A stretch of 44,035 nucleotides of DNA from an uncultured Verrucomicrobia subdivision 3 bacterium. GTDB taxonomy: Bacteria; Verrucomicrobiota; Verrucomicrobiia; Limisphaerales; UBA11358. The notes below the pieces were generated by a model. The model had not been told where the DNA came from. It saw nothing but the letters and a program-made list of their open reading frames with translations, and ran no database searches. Positions 5,017 to 36,697 of the stretch are shown here, in pieces (within the stretch, counting starts at the first letter, position 1; the number at the start of each line of letters is the position of its first letter). The position numbers and the translations under genes are program-made. The stretch is taken from NCBI GenBank assembly GCA_903917705.1, contig CAIXBQ010000036.1:1-44035 (forward strand), in the 5' to 3' direction.

Positions 5017-7178
5017 TAGCCCTTTCCGAAATCCACCCCGGCGGCGGTGACTTGGTTTCGCTGGTTGAGGACATCTTTTCCCCCGCGGGTATTCTGTCCC
5101 AAGCCAGGAATTTTGAGTTCCGCCCGCAGCAGCAGGAAATGGCCGTGGCCGTGGCGCGGGCCTTGCAACTTCAGGAGCATCTCGCCGTCGAGGCCGGCAC
5201 CGGCGTCGGCAAATCGCTGGCCTATCTGATTCCGGCGATTTTATTCGCGGTGGCACAGAAGAAAAAAGCGGTGGTCTCGACCCATACGATCAATTTGCAG
5301 GAGCAGCTCACGGAAAAGGACCTGCCGATGCTCGCGGGCGTTTTGGCCGCGCTGCCGGAACCCGTGAAGTTCAGCTATGCGATGCTCAAGGGCCGCGCCA
5401 ATTATCTCTGCACGCGCCGGCTGCAGAAGGCGATGCAGCAGAGCGGCAACTTGTTCACCTCCTCCGAGGCCGAGGAATTGCAGCGCATCTACGAATGGTC
5501 CAAGGAAACGAAGGACGGCAGTTTGTCGGATTTTGAAATCGAGCCGGACCCGAAAGTCTGGGCGCAGGTCTGTTCCGAGCGCGGCCTGTGCTCGCCGAAA
5601 ACGTGTGGTCACCAGTCGGACTTCGCGCGCGATCACGACGTTTGTTTTTTCCAGCGGGTGCGGAACCGGATTTTGTCGGCCGACGTGGTGATTCTGAACC
5701 ACACGCTGTTCTTCACGCTGCTCGGCGGCGTGGATGAGGAGCTGGCGGGCGGCATTTTGTTCAAGAACGACTTCGTGATTTTCGACGAGGCGCACACCAT
5801 GGAGAGCGTGGCGTCGCGGCACATCGGCTTGAGCGTGTCGAGCGGGCAGGTGCGTTATTCGCTGAACCGACTGTGGAACCCGCGCACCGAAAAAGGCCTG
5901 CTGGCGACGCTGCGCCAGGGCAAGGCCGTCAAGCTCGTCGCGGAGATTTTGAGCGAGTCGGACCGGTTTTTTGAGAGCGTCGAGGCGGCGTGCGAGGAAA
6001 TCCAGGCGGCGGCCAAACCCGGGCTTTCCGGCGGTGAGAGCGGCCCGGCCCGCCGGCGCGAATGGAAAGAGCTGCGCATCCGCCGCGCAGAATTGGTGAA
6101 AGACAATGTCACTCTGCCGATTCAACGACTGCGCGAAGCCGTGAGCGAACTGGTGAAAACCAGCGACGACAAGGAGATCGGCCAGGAGTTGATCGAGTGC
6201 AACCGGCGGCTGGGCGAATTGAAAATCGAGGTCGCGGAATTTTTGAGCCAGCAGGCCGACGACCATGTCTATTGGGTGGAACGCGGCGGCAAGTCACAAC
6301 GGAATCTGTCCCTGAACGCCGCGCCCGTGGACGTGGCGGAATTTCTGCGCCGCCGTTTGTTCGAGACTGACACGAGCGTCATCATGACCAGCGCCACGCT
6401 GGCGATTTCCGCCAAAGGCGTGGACGGTTCCAAGTTGAAGGTGGAAAGTACTTCCGCCGCACCGCGCAAGAAAACCTTCAACCGGCAACCAGCAACCAGC
6501 AACGGGTCGCTCAATTATTTTGTGAAACGGGTGGGGGCGGAAGCGGCGACGCAGTTGCAGGTCGGCACGCCGTTCGATTATGAGCGGCAGATGAAATTAT
6601 TTGTCGCCCAAAAAATGCCCGATCCGCGCGAGCAGGGCTATGCGGAGGCGCTGGAACACTGGATCGAGCATTTCGTGAAACAAACGCACGGCAAGGCGTT
6701 CGTGCTGTTCACCAGCTACAAGCTGATGCAGGAAGTTGCGGACCGGTTGCGGCCGTTTTTTGAGCGGCTGAAGCTGGAACTATTCGTGCAGGGCACGGGC
6801 ACGCCGCGCTCGACGATGCTGGAAAAATTCAAGGCGGACGAGGACTCGGTGCTGTTCGGCACGGACAGTTTCTGGCAGGGCGTGGACGTGCCCGGCGCGG
6901 CGCTCTCCAACGTCATCATCACGCGGCTGCCGTTCGCGGTGCCGGATCATCCGCTGATCGAGGCGCGCCTCGAGGCCATCGAGGCGCGCGGCGGCAATGC
7001 CTTCGGCGAATTTTCCCTGCCGGAAGCCATTTTAAAATTCCGCCAGGGGGTGGGGCGCCTAATCCGGACGAAAACCGACACCGGCATCATTGTCGTGCTG
7101 GACAACCGGATTCTCACCAAAAAATACGGCCGGTCGTTTCTCGACGCGCTGCCGCCCTGCCCGGTGGAAATTGTGTGA
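5013..7178 (+). CDS. dinG: ATP-dependent DNA helicase, DinG/XPD-like superfamily 2
   Basis: DinG-type helicases are 5'-3' iron-sulfur helicases that resolve R-loops and other DNA structures. The 721-residue product has Walker A EAGTGVGKS near residues 60-68 and a DEAH box (IFDEAHTME) near 256. Between them lie cysteines around residues 132-207 (NYLC, VCSERGLC, KTCGH, DVCFF) fitting the 4Fe-4S domain. The C-terminal helicase motifs include GTDSFWQGVDVPG and RQGVGRLIR. ATG 5013 was chosen because it gives the normal N-terminus and an ATGA overlap with the previous gene; the open frame itself runs 54 codons further upstream. Residues about 469-498 are encoded by a repeat insertion with a 7-bp period and are probably a lineage-specific loop. 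Confidence 0.88.
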   Translation: MIALSEIHPGGGDLVSLVEDIFSPAGILSQARNFEFRPQQQEMAVAVARALQLQEHLAVEAGTGVGKSLAYLIPAILFAVAQKKKAVVSTHTINLQEQLTEKDLPMLAGVLAALPEPVKFSYAMLKGRANYLCTRRLQKAMQQSGNLFTSSEAEELQRIYEWSKETKDGSLSDFEIEPDPKVWAQVCSERGLCSPKTCGHQSDFARDHDVCFFQRVRNRILSADVVILNHTLFFTLLGGVDEELAGGILFKNDFVIFDEAHTMESVASRHIGLSVSSGQVRYSLNRLWNPRTEKGLLATLRQGKAVKLVAEILSESDRFFESVEAACEEIQAAAKPGLSGGESGPARRREWKELRIRRAELVKDNVTLPIQRLREAVSELVKTSDDKEIGQELIECNRRLGELKIEVAEFLSQQADDHVYWVERGGKSQRNLSLNAAPVDVAEFLRRRLFETDTSVIMTSATLAISAKGVDGSKLKVESTSAAPRKKTFNRQPATSNGSLNYFVKRVGAEAATQLQVGTPFDYERQMKLFVAQKMPDPREQGYAEALEHWIEHFVKQTHGKAFVLFTSYKLMQEVADRLRPFFERLKLELFVQGTGTPRSTMLEKFKADEDSVLFGTDSFWQGVDVPGAALSNVIITRLPFAVPDHPLIEARLEAIEARGGNAFGEFSLPEAILKFRQGVGRLIRTKTDTGIIVVLDNRILTKKYGRSFLDALPPCPVEIV
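6434..6503. repeat. 7-bp-period repeat inside dinG with complementary arms
   Basis: A left arm GTTGAAGGT (6434-6442) is complementary to ACCTTCAAC (6474-6482), separated by 31 nt. It is followed by the tandem heptamers GCAACCA, GCAACCA, GCAAC (6485-6503). The stretch stays in frame and encodes a Ser/Lys/Pro/Asn-rich segment (KLKVES, then NRQPATSNG) not expected in the helicase fold. Confidence 0.6.
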
Positions 7179-7205
7179 GTTGAAACGGCCCCGCCGCTTC
7201 CCGCC

Positions 7206-7233
7206 TTGTCGGCGGGGGACTTTCTGTTAACTT
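7206..7233 (+). promoter_or_regulatory. candidate promoter of prfC, near-leaderless
   Basis: A -35-like TTGTCG (7206-7211) and -10-like TAACTT (7228-7233) are separated by 16 nt, and the GTG start of prfC follows 10 nt later with no Shine-Dalgarno sequence. The CCCGCC/GGCGGG inverted repeat at 7200-7216 overlaps the -35 and could also act as a weak dinG terminator. Confidence 0.4.
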
Positions 7234-7243
7234 CCCTGCCTTT

Positions 7244-8845
7244 GTGAGCATTGCAAAAGAAATCTCCCGGCGGCGCACGTTCGCCATCATCTCGCATCCG
7301 GACGCGGGCAAGACCACGTTGACGGAGAAGCTGCTGCTGTATGGCGGCGCGGTGCAGCTCGCCGGGTCCGTCACCGCGCGCAAAAACCAGCGCGCCACCA
7401 CCTCGGACTGGATGGAGCTGGAAAAAAAACGCGGCATCTCCATCAGCTCCACGGTGCTGCAATTCGACTATGACGGCTTCCGCATCAACCTGCTCGACAC
7501 GCCCGGCCACAAGGATTTTTCCGAGGACACTTACCGCGTGCTCACCGCCGTGGATTCCGTGGTGATGGTGATTGATTCCGCCAAAGGCATCGAGCCCCAG
7601 ACGCGCAAGTTGTTCGAAGTCTGCCGCCAGCGCGGCGTGCCGATTTTCACGTTCATGAACAAATGCGACCGGCCGATGAAGGATCCGCTCGCGCTGCTCG
7701 ACGAACTGGAGCGGGTGCTCGGCATCGGCGCGTTTCCGGTGAACTGGCCCATCGGCAACGGCCCGGATTTCCAGGGCGTCTATGACCGGCAGACGAAGAC
7801 GATGCACACTTTCGAGCGCGTCGTGGGCGGCAAATATCGCGCGCCGGTGTCCGTCGGCGGGCTGCATGATCCGGCGGTGCGCGGCAATTTGAGCGAGGCC
7901 GACTTCCACAAAACGGTCGAGGAATTGGAGATGCTCGAGCACGCCGGTGAAATTTTTGACGATGCGGCCGTCCTCGCCGGCAAAAGCACGCCCGTTTTTT
8001 TCGGCAGTGGCGTGAACAATTTCGGCGTGCAGCTTCTGCTCGACGGTTTTCTGAAACATTCGCCGGCGCCCAAATCCCGCGTGATGGGCGGCATTGAAAT
8101 AGCCCCGGAAAATCCGGCGTTTTCCGGTTTCATTTTCAAGATCCAGGCGAACATGGACCCAAAACACCGCGATCGCATCGCGTTCGTCCGCGTCTGCTCC
8201 GGCAAATTCGAGCGCGATATGACCGTTCATCATTCGCGCACGGAAAAAAAAGTCCGCCTGTCCAGTTCGCACAAGCTCTTCGGCAACGAACGCGAAACGG
8301 TGGACGAGGCTTTCCCCGGCGATGTCATCGGCCTCGTCGGCCACGACAGCTTCGGCATCGGCGACACCCTGACGACCGATCCCAGAATCCTCTATAAGGA
8401 AATTCCGCGGTTCACTCCGGAAGCTTTTTCTTATCTGCACAATCCGAACACGGGGAAATACAAGCAGTTCCGCCAGGGCCTGGACCAGCTCCTGCAGGAA
8501 GGGGTCATCCAGGCGCTGTATCTGCGCAATTCCTCCATTAAAACGCCTTTGCTCGCCGCCGTCGGCCCGCTGCAATTTGAGGTGGTTCAATTCCGCCTCG
8601 AAAGTGAATACGGCGCGGAATCCCGCCTCGAAGCTGCGCCGTGGAGCGTCGTCCGCTGGCTGCCGACGGACCTCAAGGAAGACGCGCTGGACGCGCTTTC
8701 CCTGCCCACCGGCGCGCGGCTCGCCTACGACCTCGGTAAAAATCCCGTCGTACTATTTCAAAACGATTGGTCGGCTAATTATTTCGGCGAAACGAACCGG
8801 AATTGTCCGCTTTCCGTGCTGCCGGTGCAGACGGTCAGAGAATAG
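7244..8845 (+). CDS. prfC: peptide chain release factor 3 (PrfC/RF-3)
   Basis: RF-3 is a translational GTPase that removes RF1/RF2 from the ribosome after peptide release. The 533-residue length is typical. GTPase motifs are clear: G1 HPDAGKTT (residues 18-25), the switch region with RGISISS, G3 DTPGHKDF (near 85), and G4 NKCD (near 140). The IEPQTRKLFEVCR block and the C-terminal domain also match RF-3 rather than EF-G. The start is GTG 7244: it gives the canonical N-terminus (SIAKEISRRRTFAIISHPDAGK) and no ATG is available. A long open frame on the opposite strand here is a shadow. Confidence 0.97.
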   Translation: MSIAKEISRRRTFAIISHPDAGKTTLTEKLLLYGGAVQLAGSVTARKNQRATTSDWMELEKKRGISISSTVLQFDYDGFRINLLDTPGHKDFSEDTYRVLTAVDSVVMVIDSAKGIEPQTRKLFEVCRQRGVPIFTFMNKCDRPMKDPLALLDELERVLGIGAFPVNWPIGNGPDFQGVYDRQTKTMHTFERVVGGKYRAPVSVGGLHDPAVRGNLSEADFHKTVEELEMLEHAGEIFDDAAVLAGKSTPVFFGSGVNNFGVQLLLDGFLKHSPAPKSRVMGGIEIAPENPAFSGFIFKIQANMDPKHRDRIAFVRVCSGKFERDMTVHHSRTEKKVRLSSSHKLFGNERETVDEAFPGDVIGLVGHDSFGIGDTLTTDPRILYKEIPRFTPEAFSYLHNPNTGKYKQFRQGLDQLLQEGVIQALYLRNSSIKTPLLAAVGPLQFEVVQFRLESEYGAESRLEAAPWSVVRWLPTDLKEDALDALSLPTGARLAYDLGKNPVVLFQNDWSANYFGETNRNCPLSVLPVQTVRE

Positions 8846-8885
8846 GCGCGCAGCGCTGGAAGGTTTGGGGGTGTTTGCAGCCGTG

Positions 8886-8903
8886 ACTCCCCGGGCGGGG
8901 GGT
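8886..8903 (+). terminator. candidate terminator between the convergent genes prfC and the MBL hydrolase
   Basis: ACTCCCC (8886-8892) pairs with GGGGGGT (8897-8903), including one G-T pair, around a GGGC loop. A T-rich tract begins about 14 nt later (8917 onward), further than ideal, so this is only moderately convincing. Confidence 0.35.
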
Positions 8904-8927
8904 TCCTGACCGATTGATTTTTTCCTT

Positions 8928-9749
8928 TTATGTTCCGCCGAGCCTGATCAGCCGGCCTTCACAGGCGGCTTCCACGGAAAGTTTGCCCTTCTTTTTTTTC
9001 ACCAGCGCGCGGGCGTGTTTCACCAGGGTGTCAATTTTTTTGTCGTCGTGCCCGGGATCATGGTGGAAGAGGACCAGTTTTTTCACACCCGCCTTGAGCG
9101 CAAGCGCCACGGAATCATCCACGCAACCGTGTCCCCAGCCGGTGTGTCGCCGGTACTCCGCGCGGTCGTATTGGGAGTCGAGGATCAGCACATCGGCATC
9201 CCGGATAAAATCCAGCATCTCGCGGTCTTCGCCGCCGGGTCGCGGTTCGGTGTCGGGAAAAAAACAAATCAGGCCGTCCGGCGCAAACAGCCGGTAGCCC
9301 GCGCAGACGCCGGGATGATTGGCGCGCTGGGCGCGGACCAGGAGGTTGCCAACGGCAAAATTTAAATCTTTCAGTTCCTCGATCTCAATGTTGCTGGGCA
9401 GCTCGGCAAACGGCACGGGAAAATAAGTGCTCTCCATCTGCCCGGTCAAGGCGTTGACGAGGCTTTTGCGAGCGCCACGGCCGCCGAGAATTCGCAGCCG
9501 GCAGCGCGGTTCGTAAATCGGCGCGAAAAACGGCAGCCCCTGAATATGGTCCCAGTGCGTGTGGGAGATGAGCAGGGTGAGGTTGAGGGGGGTCTTTTTG
9601 AATTCCGTGAGCAGCGCCTGTCCCAGGCACCGCAGCCCGGTCCCGGCGTCGAGGATGACGATGTCGGAGCCGGAGCGTATCTCGATGCAGGTGGTATTGC
9701 CGCCATACCGGACCGTGCCGGGACCCGGCGTGGGGATCGAGCCGCGCAC
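8928..9749 (-). CDS. MBL-fold metallohydrolase
   Basis: A metallo-beta-lactamase-fold hydrolase of 273 residues from the GTG used here. The metal-binding signature HTHWDH is at residues 63-68, with further ligands plausible in FFPDTE, DSQYD and the late FHHDPGHDD motif. It resembles the branch containing PhnP-like and cyclic-nucleotide phosphodiesterase-like enzymes; the substrate is unknown. The start is uncertain. The family N-terminus (KFWGVRGSIPTPGP) is encoded by in-frame codons upstream of the GTG, back to an ACG at 9770-9768 where an ATG would be expected, with an in-frame TAG at 9794-9792. No signal peptide. It lies downstream of dnaN but behind a strong terminator. Confidence 0.85.
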   Translation of the reverse strand: MRGSIPTPGPGTVRYGGNTTCIEIRSGSDIVILDAGTGLRCLGQALLTEFKKTPLNLTLLISHTHWDHIQGLPFFAPIYEPRCRLRILGGRGARKSLVNALTGQMESTYFPVPFAELPSNIEIEELKDLNFAVGNLLVRAQRANHPGVCAGYRLFAPDGLICFFPDTEPRPGGEDREMLDFIRDADVLILDSQYDRAEYRRHTGWGHGCVDDSVALALKAGVKKLVLFHHDPGHDDKKIDTLVKHARALVKKKKGKLSVEAACEGRLIRLGGT

Positions 9750-9889
9750 CCCCCAGAATTTTATGGTCGTTCCGTTTTGGATGACGCCACACTAGCGCAG
9801 GTTGTTAAAAAACAAAATTAAAATAATTTTTTATGGTTTTTTCCCCCGCCTCCTGGCTTTCCTCGTAACGACCGTTTCCCGCGATCAGC

Positions 9890-9933
9890 AAAAACGGCTG
9901 GATGAACATCATCCAGCCGACTTCGCTTTTTTT
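9890..9933 (-). terminator. intrinsic terminator after dnaN, possibly bidirectional
   Basis: A perfect 10-bp stem, CGGCTGGATG (9895-9904) with CATCCAGCCG (9910-9919), closes a 5-nt AACAT loop. Reading the minus strand it is followed by five T residues (A-run 9890-9894), ideal for dnaN. On the plus side a T7 run occurs at 9927-9933. Confidence 0.85.
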
Positions 9934-9943
9934 GCGTTGCTTT

Positions 9944-11053
9944 TTAATTGAGCCGCATGGGCATGACGACGTAGAGGAACGGCCCGTTGATCTTGAGGAC
10001 GCCGGGACTCAATTCATCAATCAGTTCGATAAAAACCTCGTCCTCGGCCAGGGCATTTAACGGATCAATGAGATAGCGCGGGTTGAAGGCGATGGCCAAT
10101 TCCTTGCCCTTGTAATTGATGGCGAGGGTTTCGCGGGCTTCGCCGACTTCCGGCGAGTTGGCGGTGATGGTAAGGTTATTCTTGCCAAAGGTTAGTTTGA
10201 CGGAATTAGCTTTTTCGCTGGTCATTATTTCGGCGCGACGGAGCGCTTGGACGAGTTCCTCCCGCCCGAGGGCGATGCGTTCTTTGGCCTCGCCGGGAAT
10301 GACCTGCCGGTAGTTGGGATAATTCCCCTCAATCAATTTAGTGACCAGCAAAACGGAAAATTCCTTTTCATCTTTCAGCGCGAAGGAGGCCTGGTTTTCC
10401 CCGAAATTGAGATCAACATTCCCCTTGTCCTGCAGCAGGCGGTTGAGTTCGTTAACCGCCTTGGCCGGCACGATAAATTCCCCGCTGCTTTTTTCTGAAA
10501 TGTCCACCTCCTCGTCCACCAGCGCCAGCCGGCGACCATCGGTGGCCACGAGCGTCATCTTGTGATCTTTCAAGCTGATATAGATCCCGTTGAGCACATA
10601 GCGGGATTCATCCGTGGAAACGGCAAAGCTGGTTTTCTTGAGCATCGCCCGGACGGTTTCCTGGGTAAGCGACACCTTCTTTTCATCCTTCATTTTCGGC
10701 AGCGGTGGAAATTCGTCGGCGCCCAGGCCGTGGATTTTGAAGAAGGAACCTCCGCTCCGGATGCTCGTGATGTTTTTTTCGTCGGTTTCGATTTCAATTT
10801 CCCCGCCGTTAAGCTCGCGCACGATGCCGAAAAGTTTTTTAACGGGCACGGTTGTCGCGCCGGGTTTGGTTACCTTTGCCTCCACTTTGCAGGCGACGGT
10901 CACATCCAGATCTGTGGCGGTCAGTTCCAAATGGTTGCCCTCCGCTCGCAACAAGACGTTGGAAAGGATGGGCAGCGTGGTGCGGGTGCTGACAACGTTT
11001 TGGACGGCCTGCAGGCCGGCAATGATCTGGTCTTTGGCGATGGTAAGGTTCAT
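9944..11053 (-). CDS. dnaN: DNA polymerase III subunit beta (sliding clamp)
   Basis: The ring-shaped processivity clamp that tethers the replicative polymerase. The 369-residue product shows three repeated clamp domains. The N-terminus MNLTIAKDQIIAGLQ, the TLPILSNVLL stretch, the ATDLDV motif, the VATDGRRLAL motif of domain two, and the C-terminus LYVVMPMRLN are all diagnostic. It is not next to dnaA or recF here: its upstream neighbour is a cysteine desulfurase on the same strand, with about 200 nt between containing an inverted repeat. A strong terminator follows it, so it is probably monocistronic. Identification is secure. Confidence 0.98.
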   Translation of the reverse strand: MNLTIAKDQIIAGLQAVQNVVSTRTTLPILSNVLLRAEGNHLELTATDLDVTVACKVEAKVTKPGATTVPVKKLFGIVRELNGGEIEIETDEKNITSIRSGGSFFKIHGLGADEFPPLPKMKDEKKVSLTQETVRAMLKKTSFAVSTDESRYVLNGIYISLKDHKMTLVATDGRRLALVDEEVDISEKSSGEFIVPAKAVNELNRLLQDKGNVDLNFGENQASFALKDEKEFSVLLVTKLIEGNYPNYRQVIPGEAKERIALGREELVQALRRAEIMTSEKANSVKLTFGKNNLTITANSPEVGEARETLAINYKGKELAIAFNPRYLIDPLNALAEDEVFIELIDELSPGVLKINGPFLYVVMPMRLN

Positions 11054-11213
11054 GCTCGGTTAATATTATCTTCTTCTTTAAAAAAAACTATCCGTATTAT
11101 GGCCTGTGAACAAGCCAAACAACTCACAAAACTCAATTCTTAGTTGACCAAAACCTGATCAACACCGGCGACAACTCAAAGGTAAACCCGCCAGAAAAAT
11201 TTAAAAGTCAAAG

Positions 11214-11232: not shown

Positions 11233-11255
11233 TCCATTCACAATCCGTTGGCTGT

Positions 11256-12410: not shown

Positions 12411-12415
12411 ATTAA

Positions 12416-12489
12416 GATTTACGATTTACGATGGGCGCGAATCTTTCAGCGCCGGACAAATCATAAAACGCCAAACGCCCATCGTAAAT
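12416..12489. repeat. 7-bp-period repeat and 14-bp inverted repeat spanning the trpF start
   Basis: Heptamers GATTTAC, GATTTAC, GATGGGC run from 12416 to 12436. The arm ATTTACGATGGGCG (12424-12437) is perfectly complementary to CGCCCATCGTAAAT (12476-12489), which includes the first two bases of the trpF ATG (12488). The 38-nt loop is the spacer between the two divergent genes. Confidence 0.75.
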
Positions 12490-23746: not shown

Positions 23747-23749
23747 TCT

Positions 23750-23955
23750 GGTTGGTAAACGGCTCGTGAGGACACTCGCCCCACCAGCGCTTGGAAATAT
23801 GGATGGTGGGGCGAGCGTACCCGCGAGCCGTGCTGAGAAAACACCGACAGAAACCATCTGCAAATCCGGTTGCTGCCATTGCACGCAGAAGAAGCCGTCC
23901 GCAAATTACGCCATGACCTTCTGACGCTTGAGATGGCCTTGGGAATTTTGGTGGC
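23750..23955. repeat. direct repeat copy 1, containing a REP hairpin (23761-23829)
   Basis: This 206-bp unit recurs at 23995-24200 at a constant offset of 245. It opens GGTTGGTAAAC, then has an inverted REP pair: minus copy 23761-23785, plus copy 23805-23829, and a 19-nt loop. Non-REP sequence follows, including GAAAACACCGACAGA and GCAGAAGAAGCC. No credible gene lies in it. Confidence 0.85.
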
Positions 23956-23994
23956 AGACTTCGGATTGTACCAAAGGTCATTCCTGGAAAAAAT

Positions 23995-24200
23995 GGTTGG
24001 TAAACGGCTCGTGAGGACACTCGCCCCACCAGCGTTTGGAAATATGGATGGTGGGGCGAGCGTACCCGCGAGCCGTGCTGAGAAAACACCGACAGAATCC
24101 ATCCGCAAATCCGGCTGCCGCCATTGCACTCAGAAGAAGCCATCCGCAAATTTCGCCATGACCTTCGGACGCTTGCAATAGCCTTGGCGATTTTTGCGGG
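23995..24200. repeat. direct repeat copy 2, containing a REP hairpin (24006-24074)
   Basis: Second copy of the 206-bp unit, nearly identical to copy 1 through the REP hairpin (minus arm 24006-24030, plus arm 24050-24074) and more diverged toward its end. Only 39 nt separate the two copies, so this looks like a tandem duplication of one REP-bearing unit. Confidence 0.85.
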
Positions 24201-29514: not shown

Positions 29515-29557
29515 ACGCCAGCGGTGAATCTTTATGACGGTTCAGCGCCCCGCCGGC

Positions 29558-31027
29558 TTACTTCACCTTCACGTCGAGATTGTGCCGCTGTAGCGTGCTG
29601 GCTTCCTGCTGGGCGAGATTGGCGAGCGCCTCGTTGTAGTTGGCCAGCGCGCGGATTTCTTGCGAGCGGGCGGAGGTGAGGTTGTTCTGCAGTTGCAGGA
29701 CGGTGAAGGTGGTGCTCTTGCCCACCGCGTATTTGCCCTGCTCGGCGTTGAGCGCCGCCTCGGCGTAGGTGCGCGCCTTTTGCGTGGCGTCCACGCTTTC
29801 CCAGGCGGACTGGGCCTGCTTGACCGCGTTGTCGATCTCTACCATGACGTTTTGTTCGAGCTGCTTGAGCTTGAGCAGGACCTGCTGTTCGGTGGCCTTG
29901 TCCGCCTTGAGGGAATTGCGTGCCTGGAGGTTGCTCAGCGGAATCTTGAGCGCCGCGCCGTAGCTGTAAGCCGGCCGGTTCGCCGTGCCGTATTGGTCGA
30001 ACGTGTTGTCATAGCCCGCGCCGCCGCCGTTGTAGCCGTAACTGGCGGTCACGTCGAGCTGGGGAAAAAGCTGGTTGCGGTCGAACTTCAACTGGATGCC
30101 CTGCTGCTCCAGATTAACCTGTGCCTGCAGCAGATCCGGCCGCTGCGCCAGGCCCTTGCTCCAGCTGTCCTGCACGTCAAACATCTGCCGCACCGCCGCC
30201 AGTGTCTCGGCCGGCTCGATGGCCACGTCATGCCATTGGGCGTATTTGTCCGTGATCAGGTTCTTCAGCGCGTTTTCATCCTGCGCCAGCGAAAACTGCG
30301 CGGCGATCAGGTTTGCGTGGTTTTGGGCCACTTGCGCCTCGTCCTGCTCAATGGTTCCGCCGCGTTCGGCGAGCACCTTGATTTCCACCCGCTGCCGGTC
30401 CTGGTCGAGCTGCGTCTGCGCCAGGTCCAGCGCCTGCTGTTCCACTTTCACGTTTTCGCGGGCGTAGATGAGCTCGTAATAGGCGTTCTCCACCGCCGTG
30501 ACTGTGGTGATGAGCTGCTGGCGCAGGCCCTGCTCGGACAATTTCACCTGGTTTTTCGCCGCGCTGATGTTCAGCCGCGTGCCGTCGATCCAGAAATTTT
30601 TCAGCAGCGGCTGCGTTGCGCTCACGGCGATCTGCCCGCCGGAACTTTCGCCGCTGTTGCCGTAGCTGTCGGCGACATCGCCGTTCACGCCAATCGTCGT
30701 GCCCCACGGCAGCGCGCCGTTGATGCCGGAGTTGAAGGTGTTGTTGTCGGAAAAGGGGACGCCGTTGGTCAGGAACACGCCGCCCGATTCATTGTGCGTG
30801 TGCGTGCCGGACAGGCTGAACACCGGATCGTACCCCCCATAGGCCGCGTGCAGGCTGAGCCGGGATTTCTCAGGCTCGAAGCGCTCCACTTGCACGTCGA
30901 AATTGTGCTTGAGCGCCTCGGTGAGGCAGTCTTGCAGCGACAGCGCCCGCGTTGCCGGCGCGTTCGTCTGCGCGACCGCCGCCGCCCCGAAGGCGGCCCA
31001 AAAGAAACTGGCAGCGATTTTTTTCAT
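29558..31027 (-). CDS. TolC-family outer-membrane efflux protein
   Basis: A 489-residue outer-membrane channel of the TolC/OEP type. The signal peptide (KKIAASFFWAAFGAAAVAQ) is cleaved near residue 20, and LSLQDCLTEALKHNFDVQ is the typical first repeat start. Two half-repeats follow, each with strands (SYGNSG, VSATQPLLKNF, then DVTASYGYNGGG) and long coiled helices (QQALDLAQTQLDQDRQRVE and KLKQLEQNVMVEIDNAVKQAQSAW). ATG 31027 is used, giving a clean signal peptide; the frame extends ten codons further. No inner-membrane pump or fusion-protein gene is adjacent. It is 43 nt downstream of tig on the same strand. Confidence 0.9.
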   Translation of the reverse strand: MKKIAASFFWAAFGAAAVAQTNAPATRALSLQDCLTEALKHNFDVQVERFEPEKSRLSLHAAYGGYDPVFSLSGTHTHNESGGVFLTNGVPFSDNNTFNSGINGALPWGTTIGVNGDVADSYGNSGESSGGQIAVSATQPLLKNFWIDGTRLNISAAKNQVKLSEQGLRQQLITTVTAVENAYYELIYARENVKVEQQALDLAQTQLDQDRQRVEIKVLAERGGTIEQDEAQVAQNHANLIAAQFSLAQDENALKNLITDKYAQWHDVAIEPAETLAAVRQMFDVQDSWSKGLAQRPDLLQAQVNLEQQGIQLKFDRNQLFPQLDVTASYGYNGGGAGYDNTFDQYGTANRPAYSYGAALKIPLSNLQARNSLKADKATEQQVLLKLKQLEQNVMVEIDNAVKQAQSAWESVDATQKARTYAEAALNAEQGKYAVGKSTTFTVLQLQNNLTSARSQEIRALANYNEALANLAQQEASTLQRHNLDVKVK

Positions 31028-31070
31028 TTCAAAACCAGACGCCGCGCGCCGCCGCAAAGTAACCGAAAGG

Positions 31071-32381
31071 TTATTTTGCCGTCGCGCCTTCCGTGATGGC
31101 CGCGTTCTTTTCGATCAGCTCTAGCACTTTTTCATGCAGCACCTGATCGTAAAGCTCGTTCACCCCGTTGCGTTTCTGCAAATCCTTGAGGAACTGGTCG
31201 AAGGGCATCTGGTACATCATCGCCAGTTGCTGCGCCCGGCGCAGCGCGTCTTCCTGCGTCGCTGTGATTTTTTCCTGGTCGGCGATGCGCTGGACGAGGA
31301 ACGCCAGCTTCACGCGCTCCTTGGCGCTGCTCGCGGCCGCGGAATAGATCTCGTCCTTCTGCGTCTCGATGAGTTCGCGCGCCACGCCGCGCTGCGTGTT
31401 CTGCCGCACCAGGTCATAGACCACGTTGCGCGTCTCGTTGGCCACCGCGGATTCCGGCAGGTCGAAATTCACCCGGCCCAGCAGCGCGCGGACCACTTGC
31501 GCGCGGATGGCCTTTGACTGTGAGTATTTCAGCTCGTTTTCCAGGTCCGTGCGGACGCCGGCCTTGAGCTTCTCCAGGTTTTCCGCGCCGAATTTCTTTG
31601 CCAGCTCGTCGTTCAGTTCCGGCAGGACTTTTTCCTTCACTTCGACAAGTTCCACTTCGTAGGCGCCCTTTTTGCCTTGCAGCTCGCGCGTCACAAAGTC
31701 GGCGGGGAAATCGACCGTCACCGTGCGCTTGTCGCCGGCTTTCGCGCCGGTGAGCTGCGCGGCGAAACCGGGAATGAACGATCCCTCCGTCGTCTCCACC
31801 CAGAAATTTTTCTGCTCGGTCAGGCCTTTCGCCGTCGGGGCGAGTTCGGTGATCGCCTTGCCTTCGCAGGTGCCCGTGTAGTTGACCACGGCGATGTCGC
31901 CGCTGGCCAGCGGGCGGGCCACCGTGTTGTAATTCGCGTGCTGGCCGCGCAGCAGGTCTAGCGCTTTTTCCACGTCCGTGTCCGTCACGGACTTCGATTC
32001 CAGCGTGGCCGGCAGCCCTTTGTATTCCGGGAGTTCAAACTCCGGCGCGGTCTCGATCGTGGCGGTGAACTGCAGGGATTGCCCCCGGCCGAACTGCACC
32101 TCCTCGATGTCGGGATAGCCGACCACCTGGAGTTTCTTTTCCTCGACCGCCTGGCGGTAGCTGTCGCCGACGAGTTTGCGCTTGGCCTCCTCGTTGATTT
32201 CCGCGCCGTATTTTTTCACGACCATCGGCAGCGGGGCCTTCCCCGGCCGGAAGCCCGGCAGCGCGGCCTGCTTCTGATAATCCTTCGTGATGGCGTCAAA
32301 CGCCGTGTCCACGGCGGCTGCGTCCAGTTCCACCCGCACGAGCTTTTTGCACGGGGCCAAATTTTCAACGGATACGTTCAC
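31071..32381 (-). CDS. tig: trigger factor (ribosome-associated chaperone and prolyl isomerase)
   Basis: Trigger factor binds the ribosome exit tunnel and shields nascent chains. The product has the ribosome-binding domain with the signature GFRPGKAP (here ALPGFRPGKAPLPMV) and an FKBP-type isomerase domain (GDIAVVNYTGTCEGKAI through VDFPADFVTRELQGKKGAYEVELVEVKEK). A helical C-terminal chaperone domain ends it. GTG 32381 gives the usual start (M)NVSVENLAPCKKLV, 436 residues. An in-frame ATG at 32414 would add MLRGSFNTYLT. Divergent from bioD. clpP and clpX, often next to tig, are absent. Confidence 0.94.
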   Translation of the reverse strand: MNVSVENLAPCKKLVRVELDAAAVDTAFDAITKDYQKQAALPGFRPGKAPLPMVVKKYGAEINEEAKRKLVGDSYRQAVEEKKLQVVGYPDIEEVQFGRGQSLQFTATIETAPEFELPEYKGLPATLESKSVTDTDVEKALDLLRGQHANYNTVARPLASGDIAVVNYTGTCEGKAITELAPTAKGLTEQKNFWVETTEGSFIPGFAAQLTGAKAGDKRTVTVDFPADFVTRELQGKKGAYEVELVEVKEKVLPELNDELAKKFGAENLEKLKAGVRTDLENELKYSQSKAIRAQVVRALLGRVNFDLPESAVANETRNVVYDLVRQNTQRGVARELIETQKDEIYSAAASSAKERVKLAFLVQRIADQEKITATQEDALRRAQQLAMMYQMPFDQFLKDLQKRNGVNELYDQVLHEKVLELIEKNAAITEGATAK

Positions 32382-32486
32382 GGTTAAATATGTGTTAAAC
32401 GAGCCGCGCAGCATAAATAACCCGCGGCGCAATGGCAAATTGTTTTGATGGCGCAAATCGGCCGGTTCCGCTTTGATGTGGGCGGC

Positions 32487-33164
32487 ATGCCTCGGACGAT
32501 TTTCATCACCGGCACAGATACCGGCGCCGGCAAGACGGTTTTGACCGCGTTGCTGGCGCGGTATTTGCGCGGCCGCGGGGTCCGCGTCGCCGCGCTCAAG
32601 CCGGTTTGTTCCGGCGGCCGCGCGGATGCGCTCGCCCTCCGGGCCGCGCTGGGCGGCGCGCTGGCGCTGGCGGAAATCAATCCGTGGCATTTTCGCGCGG
32701 CGGTCGCCCCGGCGCTGGCCGCGCGGCTGGCGCGCCGGCCCCTGCGGCTCGCGCCGGTGCTCGCGCGCCTCCGCGCCACCCGGCAAAAATACGATGTGAC
32801 CCTTGTGGAGGGGGCCGGCGGATTGTTGAGCCCGCTGGGTGAGGATTTTAATTCCCGCGACTTGATCGTGGCTTTGCGGGCGCGGCCGGTGATCGTGGCC
32901 CCCGACCGGCTGGGTGCCGTGAATCATGTTTTGCTGACCCTCGCGGCGTTGCCCGGCTCTTGCCGGGCCCGGGCCCGGGTGGTTCTGGTGTCGCCGTCGG
33001 CACCGGATTCCGCCACCGCGTCCAATGCCCGGCTGCTGGCGCAGTTATTCCCGCCGTCGCAAATCTTCCGCCTGCCGTGGCTCGGGGCCGGGTTCGCGCT
33101 GGACGACGCCTGGCGGCGGCCGCGGGTGCGCCGCGTGCTTCAAAAACTGTTGCTTAATTCTTAG
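32487..33164 (+). CDS. bioD: dethiobiotin synthetase
   Basis: ATP-dependent closure of the ureido ring of dethiobiotin, the penultimate step of biotin biosynthesis. The 225-residue product starts MPRTIFITGTDTGAGKT, the BioD P-loop; KPVCSGGRADALAL, EINPWHFRAAVAPALAA, TLVEGAGGLLSPLG and APDRLGAVNHVLLT also match. ATG 32487 was chosen because it places the P-loop at the normal distance and has a purine-rich upstream stretch (GGGCGGC); ATG 32448 and TTG 32445 are alternatives. No other bio genes are near. Its 3' end overlaps the convergent TPR gene by 11 nt. Confidence 0.92.
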   Translation: MPRTIFITGTDTGAGKTVLTALLARYLRGRGVRVAALKPVCSGGRADALALRAALGGALALAEINPWHFRAAVAPALAARLARRPLRLAPVLARLRATRQKYDVTLVEGAGGLLSPLGEDFNSRDLIVALRARPVIVAPDRLGAVNHVLLTLAALPGSCRARARVVLVSPSAPDSATASNARLLAQLFPPSQIFRLPWLGAGFALDDAWRRPRVRRVLQKLLLNS

Positions 33165-35199
33165 CGGGTGGCGCGTTGGTGGCGCGGAACGATTCGCGCC
33201 AGGGCTGGTGGGCTTTGTAGCGTTCGAGCCGGCCGCGTAGCGGCTCCAGGCCTTTCATCTGCGCGCCGGTGGCGAGGGTGAGCGCGTTTTGCGCGCAGGT
33301 GAGTGCGTTCGTGAAATCGCCGTTTTCGGCCAGCGCCATTCCCAGCACGTCAAATACCATCGGCTGGCTGCCGCCGGCCAGCCGGTTGGACTTCGCCGCG
33401 AGGGTCAGCGCGGCCCGGCCGTCGCGCGCGGCCCCGTTTTCGTTCGCGGCGAGGACGCGTGCGGTGTAGGCCAGGATTTGATAATCGTTCGGCGCGAGCC
33501 TCAGCGCGGCGCGCAGTTCGTCCACCGCCGCCTCGTCGCGGCCCTGCTTCAGCAGCCCCTTCGCGGTTTCGACGTGCGGCCACGGATACTGCGGGTCCAG
33601 CCGTTCCGCTTCGGCAAATTCCTGCCGCGCCTCGCGGTATTGGGCGAGCGCGGTCAGGTCGCTGCCGGCGGCATTGTGCAGCACCGCGCTGCCGGGGCGC
33701 AGACGGATGCCTTCGCGGTATTCGGCCAGCGCCTCGGCGGGCCGGCCCAGCTTGTCCAGCACGCTGCCGAGATTGTGGTGCAGTTGATAGCGGCCGCCTT
33801 CCAGCTTTTCGGCCTGCCGGTAGGTTTCCAGCGCTTCCGGATGGCGGTTTTGCTCCTCCAGGGCAACGCCGAGATTGACCAGCGCGACGTCATTGTTGGG
33901 CGTCACGGCCGCGGCCCGGCGGAACAGCGTTTCGCTGTCGCGCCAGAATTGCAGTTGAAATTCCGTGGCGCCGACGCTGCCGGCCAGCAAAATCAGGATT
34001 GTGCCGGCCCGGACCGGTTTTGGGATTCGGAACCGCTCCGCCAGGTCCTGCGCGAGAAAAACCGCGGCCAGCAGGAATCCGATCGATGGGATGTAGGTGT
34101 AGCGGTCGGCCATCGCCGTGCCGCCGACCTGCACGAGCCCGATGACCGGCACCAGCGTCCCGAGGAACCACAGCCAGCCGGTGAGCAGATACGGCTTGGC
34201 ATTCCGCTCGCGCCAGACCGCGGCGGTGATCAGCGCCAGCGCCGCCACGGCCGTCGCCACCTGGAGCGCCGGGATTTTCAGGGGCAGCGGATAAACCGCG
34301 CAAAGGTGGGCGGGCCAGAAAAAATTCAAAACGTAGTTCGCGACGGCGACCGGGGCGTTTTCCAGCCGGTAGCGCAGCGAAACCTTTGCCAGCGATACGA
34401 CCGCCTCGCCCTGGTGCTGCGCGAAAAAAGTGACGACGCAGGAAATCGCGGTGAGCAGGAAGAATGGCCATTTCTCCCTGACCAGTCGCCAGTTGCCGCT
34501 TGCCGGTGGCGGCTGGCCTGGTTCCCGGCCGGCAACCTGCAACTGGCCATTTGCCACCCGCTTGAGCGGCCAGAAATCCAGCAGCAGCATGGCGAACGGC
34601 AGCGTGACGAGCATCGGCTTGGCCATGAGCCCCAGCGCAAATCCGAGCAGGCTCGCTGCGTAGTAGGTTCTTGTTCTGACCTCTGACCTCTGGCCTCTGG
34701 CCTCGGTTTTGTTCGCTCTGGCCGCCGCCGCATATTTCGCGTAGGCCAGCAGTGACAGCAGGGCGAAAAATGTGCTCAGCACGTCCTTGCGCTCCGCGAT
34801 CCATGCCACGGACTCCACGTGCAGCGGGTGCCAGGCGAACAGCGCGGCGACCAGCGCCGCGGCCCCGGTTCTTCCCGTCATCCGCCGCAGCAGCGCGAAC
34901 AGCAGCGCGGCGTTGGCGGCGTGCAGGAGGATGTTCCCGAAGTGGTGGCCGCCCGCGTTCAGCTGGAACAGCTCGCAATCCGCCATGTGCGAGAGCCAGG
35001 TGAGCGGATGCCAGTTGCCGGCGTGGAACGCCGTGAACGCCCAGCGGAGGTCCGTCCCCGTCAGGCCGTTTTTCACGAACGGATTCTGGGTGATGTATTC
35101 GTTGTCGTCGTAATTCAGGAAGCCGTAGCGGGTCGCCGGCAGGAACACGGCGAGCGTGGCGAGGGCCAGCAGCAGGGCGATCAGGCGCGGGCGAGACAT
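33154..35199 (-). CDS. polytopic membrane protein with C-terminal TPR repeats (GT-C/TMTC-like)
   Basis: A 681-residue protein. The first about 410 residues hold many membrane helices. The opening YGFLNYDDNEYITQNP with a paired aspartate in the first luminal loop, and WHPLHVESVAWIAERKDVLS, are typical of the O-mannosyltransferase-like/TMTC proteins common in this bacterial group. The last about 230 residues are TPR units (NLGVALEEQNRHPEALETYRQAEKL, NLGSVLDKLGRPAEALAEYREGIRL and more). A glycosyltransferase role is plausible but unproven. Two short repeat-derived inserts occur near residues 165-175 (EARGQRSEVRT) and 215-240. Its stop lies within the convergent bioD 3' end. Confidence 0.85.
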   Translation of the reverse strand: MSRPRLIALLLALATLAVFLPATRYGFLNYDDNEYITQNPFVKNGLTGTDLRWAFTAFHAGNWHPLTWLSHMADCELFQLNAGGHHFGNILLHAANAALLFALLRRMTGRTGAAALVAALFAWHPLHVESVAWIAERKDVLSTFFALLSLLAYAKYAAAARANKTEARGQRSEVRTRTYYAASLLGFALGLMAKPMLVTLPFAMLLLDFWPLKRVANGQLQVAGREPGQPPPASGNWRLVREKWPFFLLTAISCVVTFFAQHQGEAVVSLAKVSLRYRLENAPVAVANYVLNFFWPAHLCAVYPLPLKIPALQVATAVAALALITAAVWRERNAKPYLLTGWLWFLGTLVPVIGLVQVGGTAMADRYTYIPSIGFLLAAVFLAQDLAERFRIPKPVRAGTILILLAGSVGATEFQLQFWRDSETLFRRAAAVTPNNDVALVNLGVALEEQNRHPEALETYRQAEKLEGGRYQLHHNLGSVLDKLGRPAEALAEYREGIRLRPGSAVLHNAAGSDLTALAQYREARQEFAEAERLDPQYPWPHVETAKGLLKQGRDEAAVDELRAALRLAPNDYQILAYTARVLAANENGAARDGRAALTLAAKSNRLAGGSQPMVFDVLGMALAENGDFTNALTCAQNALTLATGAQMKGLEPLRGRLERYKAHQPWRESFRATNAPPAKN
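34480..34556. repeat. 7-bp-period repeat with 19-bp arms inside the TPR-protein gene
   Basis: Eleven consecutive heptads can be laid out (GACCAGT, CGCCAGT, TGCCGCT, TGCCGGT and so on to TTTGCCA). GCCAGTTGCCGCTTGCCGG (34488-34506) pairs with CCGGCAACCTGCAACTGGC (34529-34547) at 17 of 19 positions. It is read in frame on the minus strand as an Asn/Gln/Pro-rich loop. Confidence 0.75.
34677..34704. repeat. four tandem heptamers TG(A/G)CCTC
   Basis: TGACCTC, TGACCTC, TGGCCTC, TGGCCTC. On the minus strand this encodes part of EARGQRSEVRT. Seven is not a multiple of three, so gain or loss of one unit would shift the frame of the TPR protein. Confidence 0.85.
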
Positions 35200-35206
35200 G
35201 GCGTTT

Positions 35207-35234
35207 GTTGTAAGCGATTTTCCGCCGCCGGCAA
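35207..35234 (-). promoter_or_regulatory. candidate promoter of the TPR-protein gene
   Basis: On the minus strand, TTGCCG (35234-35229) and TACAAC (35212-35207) are 16 nt apart, just before the ATG at 35199. Confidence 0.4.
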
Positions 35235-35388
35235 AGCGGATTCATTTTCGGTCCCCGCTCTCGTTTGCGGAAAATTTTGGGTCGCGCGAAGGCCGCGCCG
35301 CCCGCCGCCGGCAAAAACTGCTTGTCTCCGCCGCCTTCGCGGGCTTCGCGCGAAATCGGCCACGGCCCATTTTCGCTTAAAAAAGATT

Positions 35389-35417
35389 TTGCAATTTTAC
35401 GGGCGCGGGCTGATAAT
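35389..35417 (+). promoter_or_regulatory. candidate promoter of the tol-pal operon
   Basis: TTGCAA (35389-35394) and GATAAT (35412-35417) are separated by 17 nt, an excellent match to a housekeeping promoter. It gives a leader of about 70 nt before tolQ. Confidence 0.65.
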
Positions 35418-35492
35418 TTGCGGCGGCGGGCCAAAGCTCGGAGTTCCGCCACTTGGCCTAAACCGGTTCCTCACCACCAAGTTTTTATTTTT

Positions 35493-36221
35493 ATGAGCGG
35501 GTTACCTTTTGCACTCATCGCAGCCGCCACCAAGCAGGTGGAGCTGCTTTACGTTTGGGATCAGGCGAGACCGGAAGCCAAGGTCATCATCGTCCTCCTC
35601 TTCATTTCCTCCATCGCCGTCTGGTGGATGATGATCTTCAAGGTCGTCCAGATGCGGCGGGCGCGGAAGCTCAACTCCTTTTTCGGCGACGAGTTCACCG
35701 GCCAGAAAACCGTGCTGGAGATGTTTGACCGCAAGCTGCAGGTGGAGGGCTGTCCGCTCTACGCCGTCTATCAGGCCGGCTGTGTGCAGCTCGATTCGCG
35801 CCTGCGCGGGCCGAGCGGTGAGCGCGCCAAGCAGCAGATCAGTCTCAAAAACATGGAGCACATCAAGCGCGCCATCGAGAATGTCGTCGCCAAGGAGTCG
35901 CTCAAGCTGGAGTCCGGCCTGATCCTGCTGGCGATCGCCGTCAGCGGCGCGCCGTTCATGGGGCTGCTCGGCACCGTCTGGGGCGTGATGAGCACGTTCG
36001 CCGGCATCGCCCAGTCCCCGCAGGGCGCTTCGCTGGCCGTCATGGCGCCCGGCGTTTCCGCCGCGCTCGTCACCACCGTCGCCGGCCTGCTCGTCGCCAT
36101 CCCCTCGATGTTCGGCTACAACTGGCTCGTCCACAATCTCCGCGCGTTCACCGTGGAGCTGGATAACTTCGCCCAGGAGCTCGTCTCCAAGATGGAAACC
36201 GAATTCCTGGCGGACGAGTGA
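35493..36221 (+). CDS. tolQ: TolQ/ExbB/MotA-family proton channel protein
   Basis: Inner-membrane component of the Tol-Pal energy-transducing complex, forming a proton channel with TolR. The 242-residue product has an N-terminal helix (VIIVLLFISSIAVWWMMIFKVV), a large cytoplasmic domain, and two C-terminal helices. These carry the family signature GAPFMGLLGTVWGVMSTFAGIA and VAPGVSAALVTTVAGLLVAIPSMFGYN-like text (here VMAPGVSAALVTT). ATG 35493 starts the conserved protein; the open frame begins 76 codons upstream. TolQ rather than ExbB is inferred because tolR, TolA-like, tolB and pal genes follow. Confidence 0.9.
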   Translation: MSGLPFALIAAATKQVELLYVWDQARPEAKVIIVLLFISSIAVWWMMIFKVVQMRRARKLNSFFGDEFTGQKTVLEMFDRKLQVEGCPLYAVYQAGCVQLDSRLRGPSGERAKQQISLKNMEHIKRAIENVVAKESLKLESGLILLAIAVSGAPFMGLLGTVWGVMSTFAGIAQSPQGASLAVMAPGVSAALVTTVAGLLVAIPSMFGYNWLVHNLRAFTVELDNFAQELVSKMETEFLADE

Positions 36222-36249
36222 GTTGCCGGTTGCAAGGTGCGGATTGAAA
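36222..36249. repeat. left 7-bp-period array flanking the four-helix-bundle gene
   Basis: Begins on the base after the tolQ stop and reads GTTGCCG, GTTGCAA, GGTGCGG, ATTGAAA. Its TGCCGGTTGCAAG (36224-36236) is the exact complement of CTTGCAACCGGCA at 36682-36694. Confidence 0.75.
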
Positions 36250-36253
36250 AACC

Positions 36254-36697
36254 ATGGCTACGGTTCGACAGTTTGAAGATTTGAATGTCTGGCAGGATGC
36301 CCGGCAGTTGGTCGTTGCTATCTATACGGCGTCAAACCTGCGGGCATTCAATCAGGACTTCGGCCTGCGCGACCAGATTCGGCGGGCGGCGGTTTCCACC
36401 ATGTCAAACATTGCGGAGGGGTTTGAACGCGGCCCGCGCAAGGAATTTATCCAGTTTCTGAATATTGCCAAAGGGTTGAATGGTGAAGTTCGTTCGCAGC
36501 TTTGTGTCGCCTCGGATCAAAAATACCTCGGCGGGAAAGAATTTATATCGTTGTCCGATTCCTCGGTTTTGTTGTCCAAGAAATTGGCTGCCTTCCTTCG
36601 CTACCTTGAGGGCTACGCGGCGGATTCCTGGGGGAAAAAGTCCGCGCGTCCCGCCGCCAACCAGCAACCTTCAACCAGTCACTTGCAACCGGCATGA
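36254..36697 (+). CDS. S23/IVP-type four-helix-bundle protein inserted in the tol operon
   Basis: A 147-residue protein of the family first known from intervening sequences of 23S rRNA genes. The family text is clear: FEDLNVWQDARQLVVAIYTAS, FGLRDQIRRAAVSTMSNIAEGFERG, EFIQFLNIAKGLNGEVRSQLCVA and LSKKLAAFLRYLEGY. Function is unknown; related Avd proteins bind nucleic acid in diversity-generating retroelements. It interrupts tolQ-tolR. Both flanks are heptad repeat arrays with complementary 13-bp ends, and its last about 15 residues (AANQQPSTSHLQPA) are translated from the right-hand array. Its stop overlaps the tolR start (ATGA). This looks like a gene acquired as a repeat-bounded cassette. Confidence 0.88.
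   Translation: MATVRQFEDLNVWQDARQLVVAIYTASNLRAFNQDFGLRDQIRRAAVSTMSNIAEGFERGPRKEFIQFLNIAKGLNGEVRSQLCVASDQKYLGGKEFISLSDSSVLLSKKLAAFLRYLEGYAADSWGKKSARPAANQQPSTSHLQPA
36658..36694. repeat. right 7-bp-period array flanking the four-helix-bundle gene
   Basis: Reads CAACCAG, CAACCTT, CAACCAG, TCACTTG, CAACCGG and ends at the A of the tolR ATG. It is complementary in sense to the left array (GTTGC words) and forms the C-terminal tail of the four-helix-bundle protein. Confidence 0.75.

What the first reader, a model, noticed from the sequence alone, without database searches (positions are those of the whole stretch)
6434..36694. A dispersed family of 7-bp-period DNA arrays with complementary arms
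At least six sites share the same architecture, tandem degenerate heptamers: dinG (6434-6503), the trpF start (12416-12489), the TPR gene (34480-34556 and 34677-34704), and both flanks of the four-helix gene (36222-36249, 36658-36694). Most have arms that pair: 9/9, 14/14, 17/19 and 13/13 bases. The words differ (GATTTAC, TGACCTC, GCAACCA, GTTGCCG), so this is not one sequence copied but a recurring period. Heptameric tandem repeats are known from cyanobacteria (STRR), but I know of no described system with this paired-arm form. They may reflect a replication or hairpin-templated process.
Basis: partly seen in the sequence, partly recalled or inferred. Interest (0 to 1): 0.8.

Follow-up and report, generated by a model that had tools for sequence, protein, structure and literature searches.

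The report
Heptad-armed elements around four-helix genes
The scattered seven-base repeats in this bacterium appear to be the inverted arms of a small mobile element that often carries one gene, for a ring-forming four-helix protein, and the arms tend to hold five repeats, the number of subunits in that ring.

Summary
The arrays are real: 16 strong period-7 segments in 350 kb of this genome, 0 in Markov and triplet-shuffled nulls. The "four-helix gene" (36254-36697) is PF05635, the S23/23S rRNA-intervening-sequence protein, and is the key. Of 77 named loci of this family, 48 have a strong period-7 array within 270 bp, in 11 named phylum-level groups; distant flanks 7 of 77. A locus's left arm is the reverse complement of its own right arm, not of other loci's (85 of 132 vs 2.3 expected). 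Words differ, but the unit is AGTNNNN, and runs of AG at 7-bp spacing peak at five. Solved relatives are pentamers. Gene-less hairpins share words with the PF05635 arms of their own genome. Closed plasmids show filled and empty sites, with a 5-bp duplication at one clean site. Best reading: a mobile element related to rRNA intervening sequences, whose five-heptad arms are read by a PF05635 pentamer. Linkage and anatomy are shown, mobility is supported, ring binding is inferred. My searches of an open-access library found no paper making this link.

The parts
36222..36249 (+). Left (5') arm of the gene-bearing element, directly after the stop of the tolQ/exbB-like gene (GTTGCCGGTTGCAAGGTG...)
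   Evidence: Sequence; pairs with the right arm, local score 15, just above the swapped-arm 95th percentile of 14
36254..36697 (+). PF05635 / TIGR02436 four-helix-bundle (S23, 23S rRNA-IVP) gene, 147 aa; its C-terminal tail is encoded by the right arm
   Evidence: Pfam 105.4 bits, NCBIfam TIGR02436 98.9 bits; AlphaFold2 mean pLDDT 88.3, tail 50-63; Foldseek 2gsc E 1.4e-6, Avd 4dwl E 0.073
36658..36692 (+). Right (3') arm (CAACCAGCAACCTTCAACCAGTCACTTGCAAC), ending just before the tolR/exbD-like start codon
   Evidence: Sequence; aligned with three orthologous copies, words of both arms shown; of 30 loci aligned here, window included, 20 have a short or no spacer
6430..6505 (+). Gene-less hairpin inside the dinG/yoaA-like helicase gene, in frame; arms 6430-6449 and 6472-6505
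   Evidence: all 30 loci aligned, window included, have an in-frame 30-87 bp stretch at this loop, several with different period-7 words; RNA folding not better than shuffles
12412..12489 (+). Gene-less hairpin at the trpF start; stem 12424-12437 with 12476-12489
   Evidence: 14-bp stem, z -2.97; both arms in 13 of 30 loci, window included, one arm in 2 more
34480..34556 (+). Gene-less hairpin inside the TPR-protein gene; arms 34488-34506 and 34529-34547
   Evidence: z -2.47; the best fold uses partly other pairs; TPR family matches
34675..34704 (+). Single CT-type heptad array, TCTGACC x4.3, in the TPR gene; no partner arm seen

Best explanation
The arrays are the ends of a small mobile element family. 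Full form: [5' arm, about five AGTNNNN heptads] - PF05635 gene - [3' arm, its reverse complement], about 0.4-0.5 kb. Short form: the same arms around a short loop, without the gene. SHOWN: the arrays accompany PF05635 genes across phyla; the two arms of one locus are complementary although words differ between loci; AG runs at 7-bp spacing peak at five; gene-less hairpins share words with the PF05635 arms of the same genome in the two genomes tested; filled and empty sites exist. SUPPORTED: the element moves (5-bp duplication at one clean site; nearly identical gene at unrelated loci of two genomes). INFERRED: the PF05635 protein, a toroidal pentamer, binds the single-stranded 5' arm with one AG heptad per subunit, much as the 11-subunit TRAP ring binds 11 (G/U)AG repeats, so gene-bearing copies can mobilise gene-less ones with the same word. 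Mutations in a word spread through the tandem arm by slippage, and to the other arm by hairpin-templated repair or selection for pairing. PF05635 has no known function, so cutting and joining would have to be borrowed from the host or another element.
For: Named loci (best 80 of 568 relatives, 77 usable): period-7 segment within 270 bp in 48 of 77 vs 7 of 77 in distant flanks; other periods not multiples of 7: 0-8 of 77. Genus 18 of 29 and phylum 15 of 29 at the same score. Arms: score >=17 in 85 of 132 loci vs 2.3 expected from swapped arms, 1 of 120 in distant flanks; related loci merged, 64 of 102 vs 1.4. AG runs at spacing 7, 135 loci, both strands: 3:76, 4:53, 5:90, 6:16, 7:7, longer:9; distant flanks 3:21, 4:8, 5:5. 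Merged to 104 clusters, expected strand: 3:44, 4:34, 5:53, 6:8, 7:7. Unit fitted to 97 arrays: information 3.25 vs null max 2.87 of 20; AG on the expected strand in 79 of 97. All period-7 arrays in 1.75 Mb, mostly away from PF05635: dinucleotide run 4:21, 5:45, 6:11 of 86. Pentamer: five chains each in 2gsc, 2rld; toroidal homopentamer in PMC4990558 introduction. Own-genome word match reached by 0 of 300 random sets in Pseudoxanthomonas, 3 of 300 in G000. Sampled genomes without PF05635: 1 array in 222 kb; with it 56 in 1127 kb. Plasmid site with GTAAT doubled, two filled vs three empty records. L009/L011: gene identical for the first 351 bases, 4 mismatches in 360, outer flanks unrelated.
Against: 29 of 77 named loci have no strong period-7 array (Bacteroidota 18 of 41 have one). 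Per cluster, the longest AG run is exactly five in only 20 of 104, longer in 19, shorter in 65: the five-mode is a feature of runs, not of every locus. In the window's own genome 3 of 4 PF05635 genes have a lag-7 segment of score >=8, the window's gene only 7; only L001 and L004 arms were found by the aligner, L002 and L003 by eye. Only one target duplication is clean; the other sites examined are blurred by divergence or by the arrays. Array density does not rise with PF05635 copy number (Spearman 0.21, p 0.28), and the presence/absence comparison rests on four genomes of one genus, one of which (G035) has an array. Protein similarity hardly predicts word similarity (Mantel 0.057, within permutations; named loci alone 0.123, above the 95% permutation level 0.076). 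The anchor is not always AG (GG or CG in some arrays). The opposite strand also shows 11 runs of five. Published Nostoc repeats are mostly unpaired and Beggiatoaceae report 169 direct sets and one indirect. The fold match to Avd is weak by E-value (0.073). L009/L011 come from metagenome bins and L011 ends 402 bp after the match. No binding or movement has been measured.
Confidence: 0.63

Rival explanations
1. Ordinary simple-sequence repeats: heptamers are favoured by DNA polymerase slippage and have nothing to do with the neighbouring gene.
For: This is the published suggestion for the excess of heptamers in bacteria (passages of PMC4679880 and PMC4692102); arm lengths do vary; many published arrays are unpaired.
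Against: Enrichment beside PF05635 genes in many phyla, none beside PF13366 genes of the same genus (period 7 near 0 of 24); locus-specific arm pairing; strand preference 79 of 97; sharp drop after five units.
Confidence: 0.09
2. A regulatory RNA site: the PF05635 ring binds heptad hairpins in mRNA to control translation or decay, including its own mRNA, and the hairpins are kept because they work, not because they move.
For: TRAP precedent (passage of PMC3913778); arms lie in operons right before start codons; the trpF hairpin has both arms in 13 of 30 loci.
Against: tolQ-tolR spacer short or absent in 20 of 30 loci; hairpins inside coding sequence; PF05635 genes in unrelated operons including cas genes; target duplication at one site.
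Confidence: 0.14
3. An RNA-copied element: PF05635, like its relative Avd in diversity-generating retroelements, hands the hairpin RNA to a reverse transcriptase supplied in trans.
For: Foldseek matches to Avd and DGR ribonucleoprotein chains, probability 0.98-1.00 but E 0.07-0.9; PMC10053308 passage on Avd/PF05635 homology.
Against: RVT_1 found in 18 of 49 genus genomes; no match in PF05635-rich ones at least 90% complete (G021 14 copies, G037 11, G009 10). Incomplete genomes may hide one.
Confidence: 0.1

Closest known systems
23S rRNA intervening sequence (IVS) with S23 ORF, e.g. Coxiella 428-nt element (PMC4990558: abstract, passages, introduction)
   Same: Small element with terminal inverted stem, PF05635-family ORF, heptameric direct repeats before the ORF varying in number between strains, called selfish and once proposed mobile
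   Different: IVS lie in rRNA genes and are cut out by RNase III; the elements here lie between or inside protein genes, have gene-less relatives, and show heptads on both arms
Heptameric repeats of Xanthomonas (GGGAATC), Nostoc (GGGGA(C/T)T), Beggiatoaceae (TAACTGA) (PMC4692102, PMC4679880: passages, one section)
   Same: Period 7; in Xanthomonas a four-unit mode (which would give five anchors) and 70 inverted pairs
   Different: Published as G-quadruplex or regulatory repeats, not associated with mobile elements or PF05635 in the passages read; Nostoc mostly unpaired, Beggiatoaceae nearly all direct. I did not scan these genomes; sameness is proven for none
REPIN/RAYT, MITE and Rickettsia palindromic elements (recalled)
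   Same: Short non-autonomous hairpins spread in trans, tolerated even inside coding sequence
   Different: Those have fixed sequences and, for REP, a catalytic transposase; here only period and anchor are shared
TRAP ring of Bacillus (PMC3913778, passages)
   Same: Ring protein whose RNA site has as many short repeats as subunits
   Different: Unrelated function (trp operon attenuation); a working analogy only

Membership tests
PF05635 / TIGR02436 protein family | HMM score above curated cut-off | tested here: met
   105.4 vs 33.8 bits; 98.9 vs 24 bits
PF05635 / TIGR02436 protein family | Four-helix fold as in 2gsc/2rld | tested here: met
   Foldseek E 1.4e-6 and 1.2e-4
PF05635 / TIGR02436 protein family | Pentamer | not testable with these tools
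   Inferred from five chains in 2gsc/2rld and PMC4990558 text
23S rRNA intervening sequence | Inserted in an rRNA gene | tested here: not met
   Window copy lies between tolQ- and tolR-like protein genes
23S rRNA intervening sequence | S23 ORF within complementary termini | tested here: met
23S rRNA intervening sequence | RNase III excision without ligation | not testable with these tools
   None
Transposable element (general) | Presence/absence at orthologous sites | tested here: met
   tolQ-tolR; plasmid site 1
Transposable element (general) | Target-site duplication | tested here: inconclusive
   5 bp at one clean site; other sites unclear
Transposable element (general) | Own catalytic enzyme | not tested
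   The only gene is PF05635; no call searched for a catalytic site
Diversity-generating retroelement | Reverse transcriptase encoded with the Avd-like protein | tested here: not met
   The one RVT_1 match of this genome is on contig C125, not the window's C36; 31 of 49 genus genomes have none

The most novel reading that the evidence does not exclude
A new class of mobile element found across bacterial phyla and recognised by rhythm rather than sequence: each end is a five-fold heptad array read by a five-fold protein ring, one AG per subunit, with the remaining five positions free to drift as element-specific words. Its gene-less copies would account for much of the long-unexplained excess of heptamer repeats in bacterial genomes, and the S23-coding 23S rRNA intervening sequences would be the rRNA-resident branch of the class.
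Probability: 0.46. Interest if true: 0.94.

Novelty: new variant of a known kind. Interest (0 to 1): 0.86.

Why it matters
It gives a testable function to a protein family found in 220 of 288 genomes sampled from this phylum and described as of no known function, offers a cause for a heptamer excess that published work ascribed to polymerase slippage, and predicts a simple symmetry rule (five subunits, five repeats) that one binding experiment can confirm or kill. It may also explain odd in-frame protein insertions and short protein tails as traces of one element family.

Tried and rejected
First scan of arms with 400-bp flanks was swamped by orthologous host genes in opposite orientation; redone with 200-bp flanks and more loci. 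Copy number against array density: no correlation. Protein-word Mantel test: none overall, weak in named loci. Reverse transcriptase in trans weakened. A scan of four 100-kb and one 50-kb stretches of related plasmids found no other inserted period-7 hairpin than the one PF05635 element. PF13366 was guessed from memory to go with the 11-bp arrays; it shows none of period 11 but periods 8 and 9. Papers on how Avd binds RNA: two searches found none. Sampling more genomes without PF05635 could not be run.

Rows left out: 5 of 34 genus loci truncated at contig ends (L008, L011, L015, L022, L024), 1 of 30 phylum loci (L213), 3 of 80 named loci (L272, L282, L309), 3 of the remaining 135 from the arm test, 6 of 30 PF13366 loci. 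In one search the word sets of L001 and L366 fell under the threshold and were not used. Of 24 plasmid records hit I examined the flanks of 7 hits: 5, all with period-7 arrays (one, L416, with arms the aligner missed), and 2, one with period 7 and one (L440) without.

Change after re-checking: confidence lowered from 0.66 to 0.63 and the novel case from 0.50 to 0.46, because the longest run per cluster is five in only 20 of 104 and because published Nostoc and Beggiatoaceae repeats are mostly unpaired.

Searches behind the statement that the PF05635 link is not in print: (open PMC library only) and passages of PMC4692102, PMC4679880, PMC4990558.
Full report
WHAT IS THERE. The window is contig C36 of a 3.76-Mb, 66% complete genome in 167 contigs; the closest named hits to a genus protein are Verrucomicrobia. 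All six sites of the finding exist. In 350 kb of this genome period 7 stands out: 16 segments at score >=15, against 0-3 for the other periods from 4 to 20, and none at that score in ten Markov and twenty triplet-shuffled controls. Pairing of the arms is good at trpF and 34480, not better than shuffles at dinG, and not seen at 34675.

THE COMMON FACTOR. The four-helix gene is PF05635. The genome has four such genes. Read by eye, all four sit between heptad arrays whose arms are complementary, each with another word; the automatic scan gives a lag-7 segment of score >=8 beside three of them and 7 beside the window's. In the genus 45 of 49 genomes have the family, up to 14 copies; in the phylum 220 of 288 sampled. 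Lag-7 matching is raised next to the gene in the genus (0.316 vs 0.265), the phylum (0.336 vs 0.271) and the named loci (0.330 vs 0.264). Loci with an array of score >=11 within 270 bp: genus 18 of 29, phylum 15 of 29, named 48 of 77; distant flanks of the named loci 7 of 77. By group (my assignment from record titles): Pseudomonadota 10 of 10, Planctomycetota 5 of 7, Verrucomicrobiota 4 of 5, Bacteroidota 18 of 41, Acidobacteriota 2 of 2, Gemmatimonadota 2 of 2, Bacillota 2 of 2, Patescibacteria 1 of 2, Omnitrophota, SAR324, Bipolaricaulota and one unassigned 1 of 1 each, Nitrospirota and Chloroflexota 0 of 1 each. On closed cyanobacterial plasmids five of five loci examined have arrays, a sixth does, a seventh has no period-7 segment.

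ARMS COVARY. For 132 loci the left arm matches the reverse complement of its own right arm (median 19) far better than that of another locus (median 9). Among orthologous copies the words change on both arms together; for example one set uses AGTGTTC/AGTTTCA words in some genomes and AGGTTTC in another, on both sides (read from the alignment).

FIVE. With phase and orientation fitted to 97 arrays of 63 loci, the unit is A-G-T plus four freer positions (A 0.80, G 0.91, T 0.58 on the AG strand). Runs of AG at 7-bp spacing number 76, 53, 90, 16 and 7 for lengths 3 to 7, with 9 longer; distant flanks give 21, 8, 5, 0, 2. After merging related loci and taking the expected strand they number 44, 34, 53, 8 and 7. 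The chance of going on to another unit is about 0.7 up to five and about 0.3 after. This is a property of runs: the longest run of a cluster is exactly five in 20 of 104, longer in 19, shorter in 65. All period-7 arrays in 1.75 Mb, found without regard to genes, have a similar size, 45 of 86 with a run of five of their best-conserved dinucleotide (the phase was chosen for the best run). Published Xanthomonas arrays are mostly four units, which would be five anchors. Solved PF05635 proteins have five chains (2gsc, 2rld) and are described as a toroidal homopentamer (PMC4990558 introduction). The model of the window protein matches both, and more weakly Avd. That the ring reads the array is my inference; TRAP is the precedent.

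SHORT FORMS. In Pseudoxanthomonas, 400 kb hold period-7 arrays of essentially two word families, GGGACCG and GAGAAAC/GAGGAGT, several as hairpins; two of its three PF05635 genes have these words in their arms. Matching to own-genome words was reached by 0 of 300 random sets there and 3 of 300 in the window's genome. At one plasmid site a gene-bearing copy in one strain and a gene-less hairpin with a similar word in another share the left junction, and at another site a decayed copy keeps a gene fragment (read by eye).

MOVEMENT. Between tolQ- and tolR-like genes (names mine, no family search) 30 loci, the window's included, show 5 intact gene-bearing copies, 1 remnant, 4 hairpins of other periods and 20 short or absent spacers. 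The dinG loop carries in-frame stretches of 30-87 bp in all 30 loci aligned, window included, with several unrelated period-7 words and some other palindromes; it is either a tolerant landing site hit repeatedly or an old insert whose word has turned over, and I cannot tell which. On closed plasmids a gene-bearing copy in two records is missing in three others 97.5-98.0% identical to one of them, and GTAAT is present on both sides of the element and once in the empty site. L009 and L011, from two genomes of the genus, carry a PF05635 gene identical for its first 351 bases at loci with unrelated outer flanks.

DEPENDENCE. Stretches of four genus genomes without a PF05635 match have 1 array in 222 kb; 25 genomes with it have 56 in 1127 kb. 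Copy number does not predict density, and all are of one genus, so this is suggestive only.

KNOWN OR NEW. The rRNA intervening sequence is the nearest relative; the window copy fails its defining location, so I do not file it as one. The Xanthomonas repeats, with four-unit mode and inverted pairs, look like the same phenomenon, and X. campestris is the source of the PF05635 structure 2gsc; the Nostoc and Beggiatoaceae repeats are mostly unpaired and less certain, though PF05635 genes with heptad arms do occur on Nostoc and Calothrix plasmids. I scanned none of those published genomes. The link between PF05635 and heptad arms, the five-unit mode and the gene-less partners are in no paper my searches found.

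Noticed in passing
L315-L344 (PF13366 nuclease-family loci of the genus): Period-8 arrays near 7 of 24 and period-9 near 6 of 24 of these genes, 0 of 24 in distant flanks: possibly a sister element with another protein and another period.
   Followed up: partly
L059, L074, L077, L081 (tolQ-tolR spacer): Hairpins with an 11-bp rhythm (ACACAGATGAA-like; first three) and an 8-bp rhythm (L081), read by eye, at the site where the window has the PF05635 element.
   Followed up: no
L418 and L440 (cyanobacterial plasmids): PF05635 gene sits inside CRISPR operons (cas6-IVP-cas4; cas10-IVP-cmr3) and is absent at the second site in PCC 7002 (L443), which suggests passenger insertions rather than a Cas function.
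   Followed up: partly
window 23749-24196: A 245-bp tandem duplication with GGTGGGGCGAGCG motifs; a similar motif lies upstream of trpF in L120.
   Followed up: no
L108 and L111, dinG loop: Other palindromic repeats (GTGCTGCCGGC..., GTAGGACAGGCGTC...) occupy the same in-frame dinG loop.
   Followed up: no
window 36620-36694: The right arm is translated into the protein's C-terminal tail (NQQPSTSHLQPA); a relative has NLQPATCNLQP; the window's tail is predicted with low confidence.
   Followed up: partly
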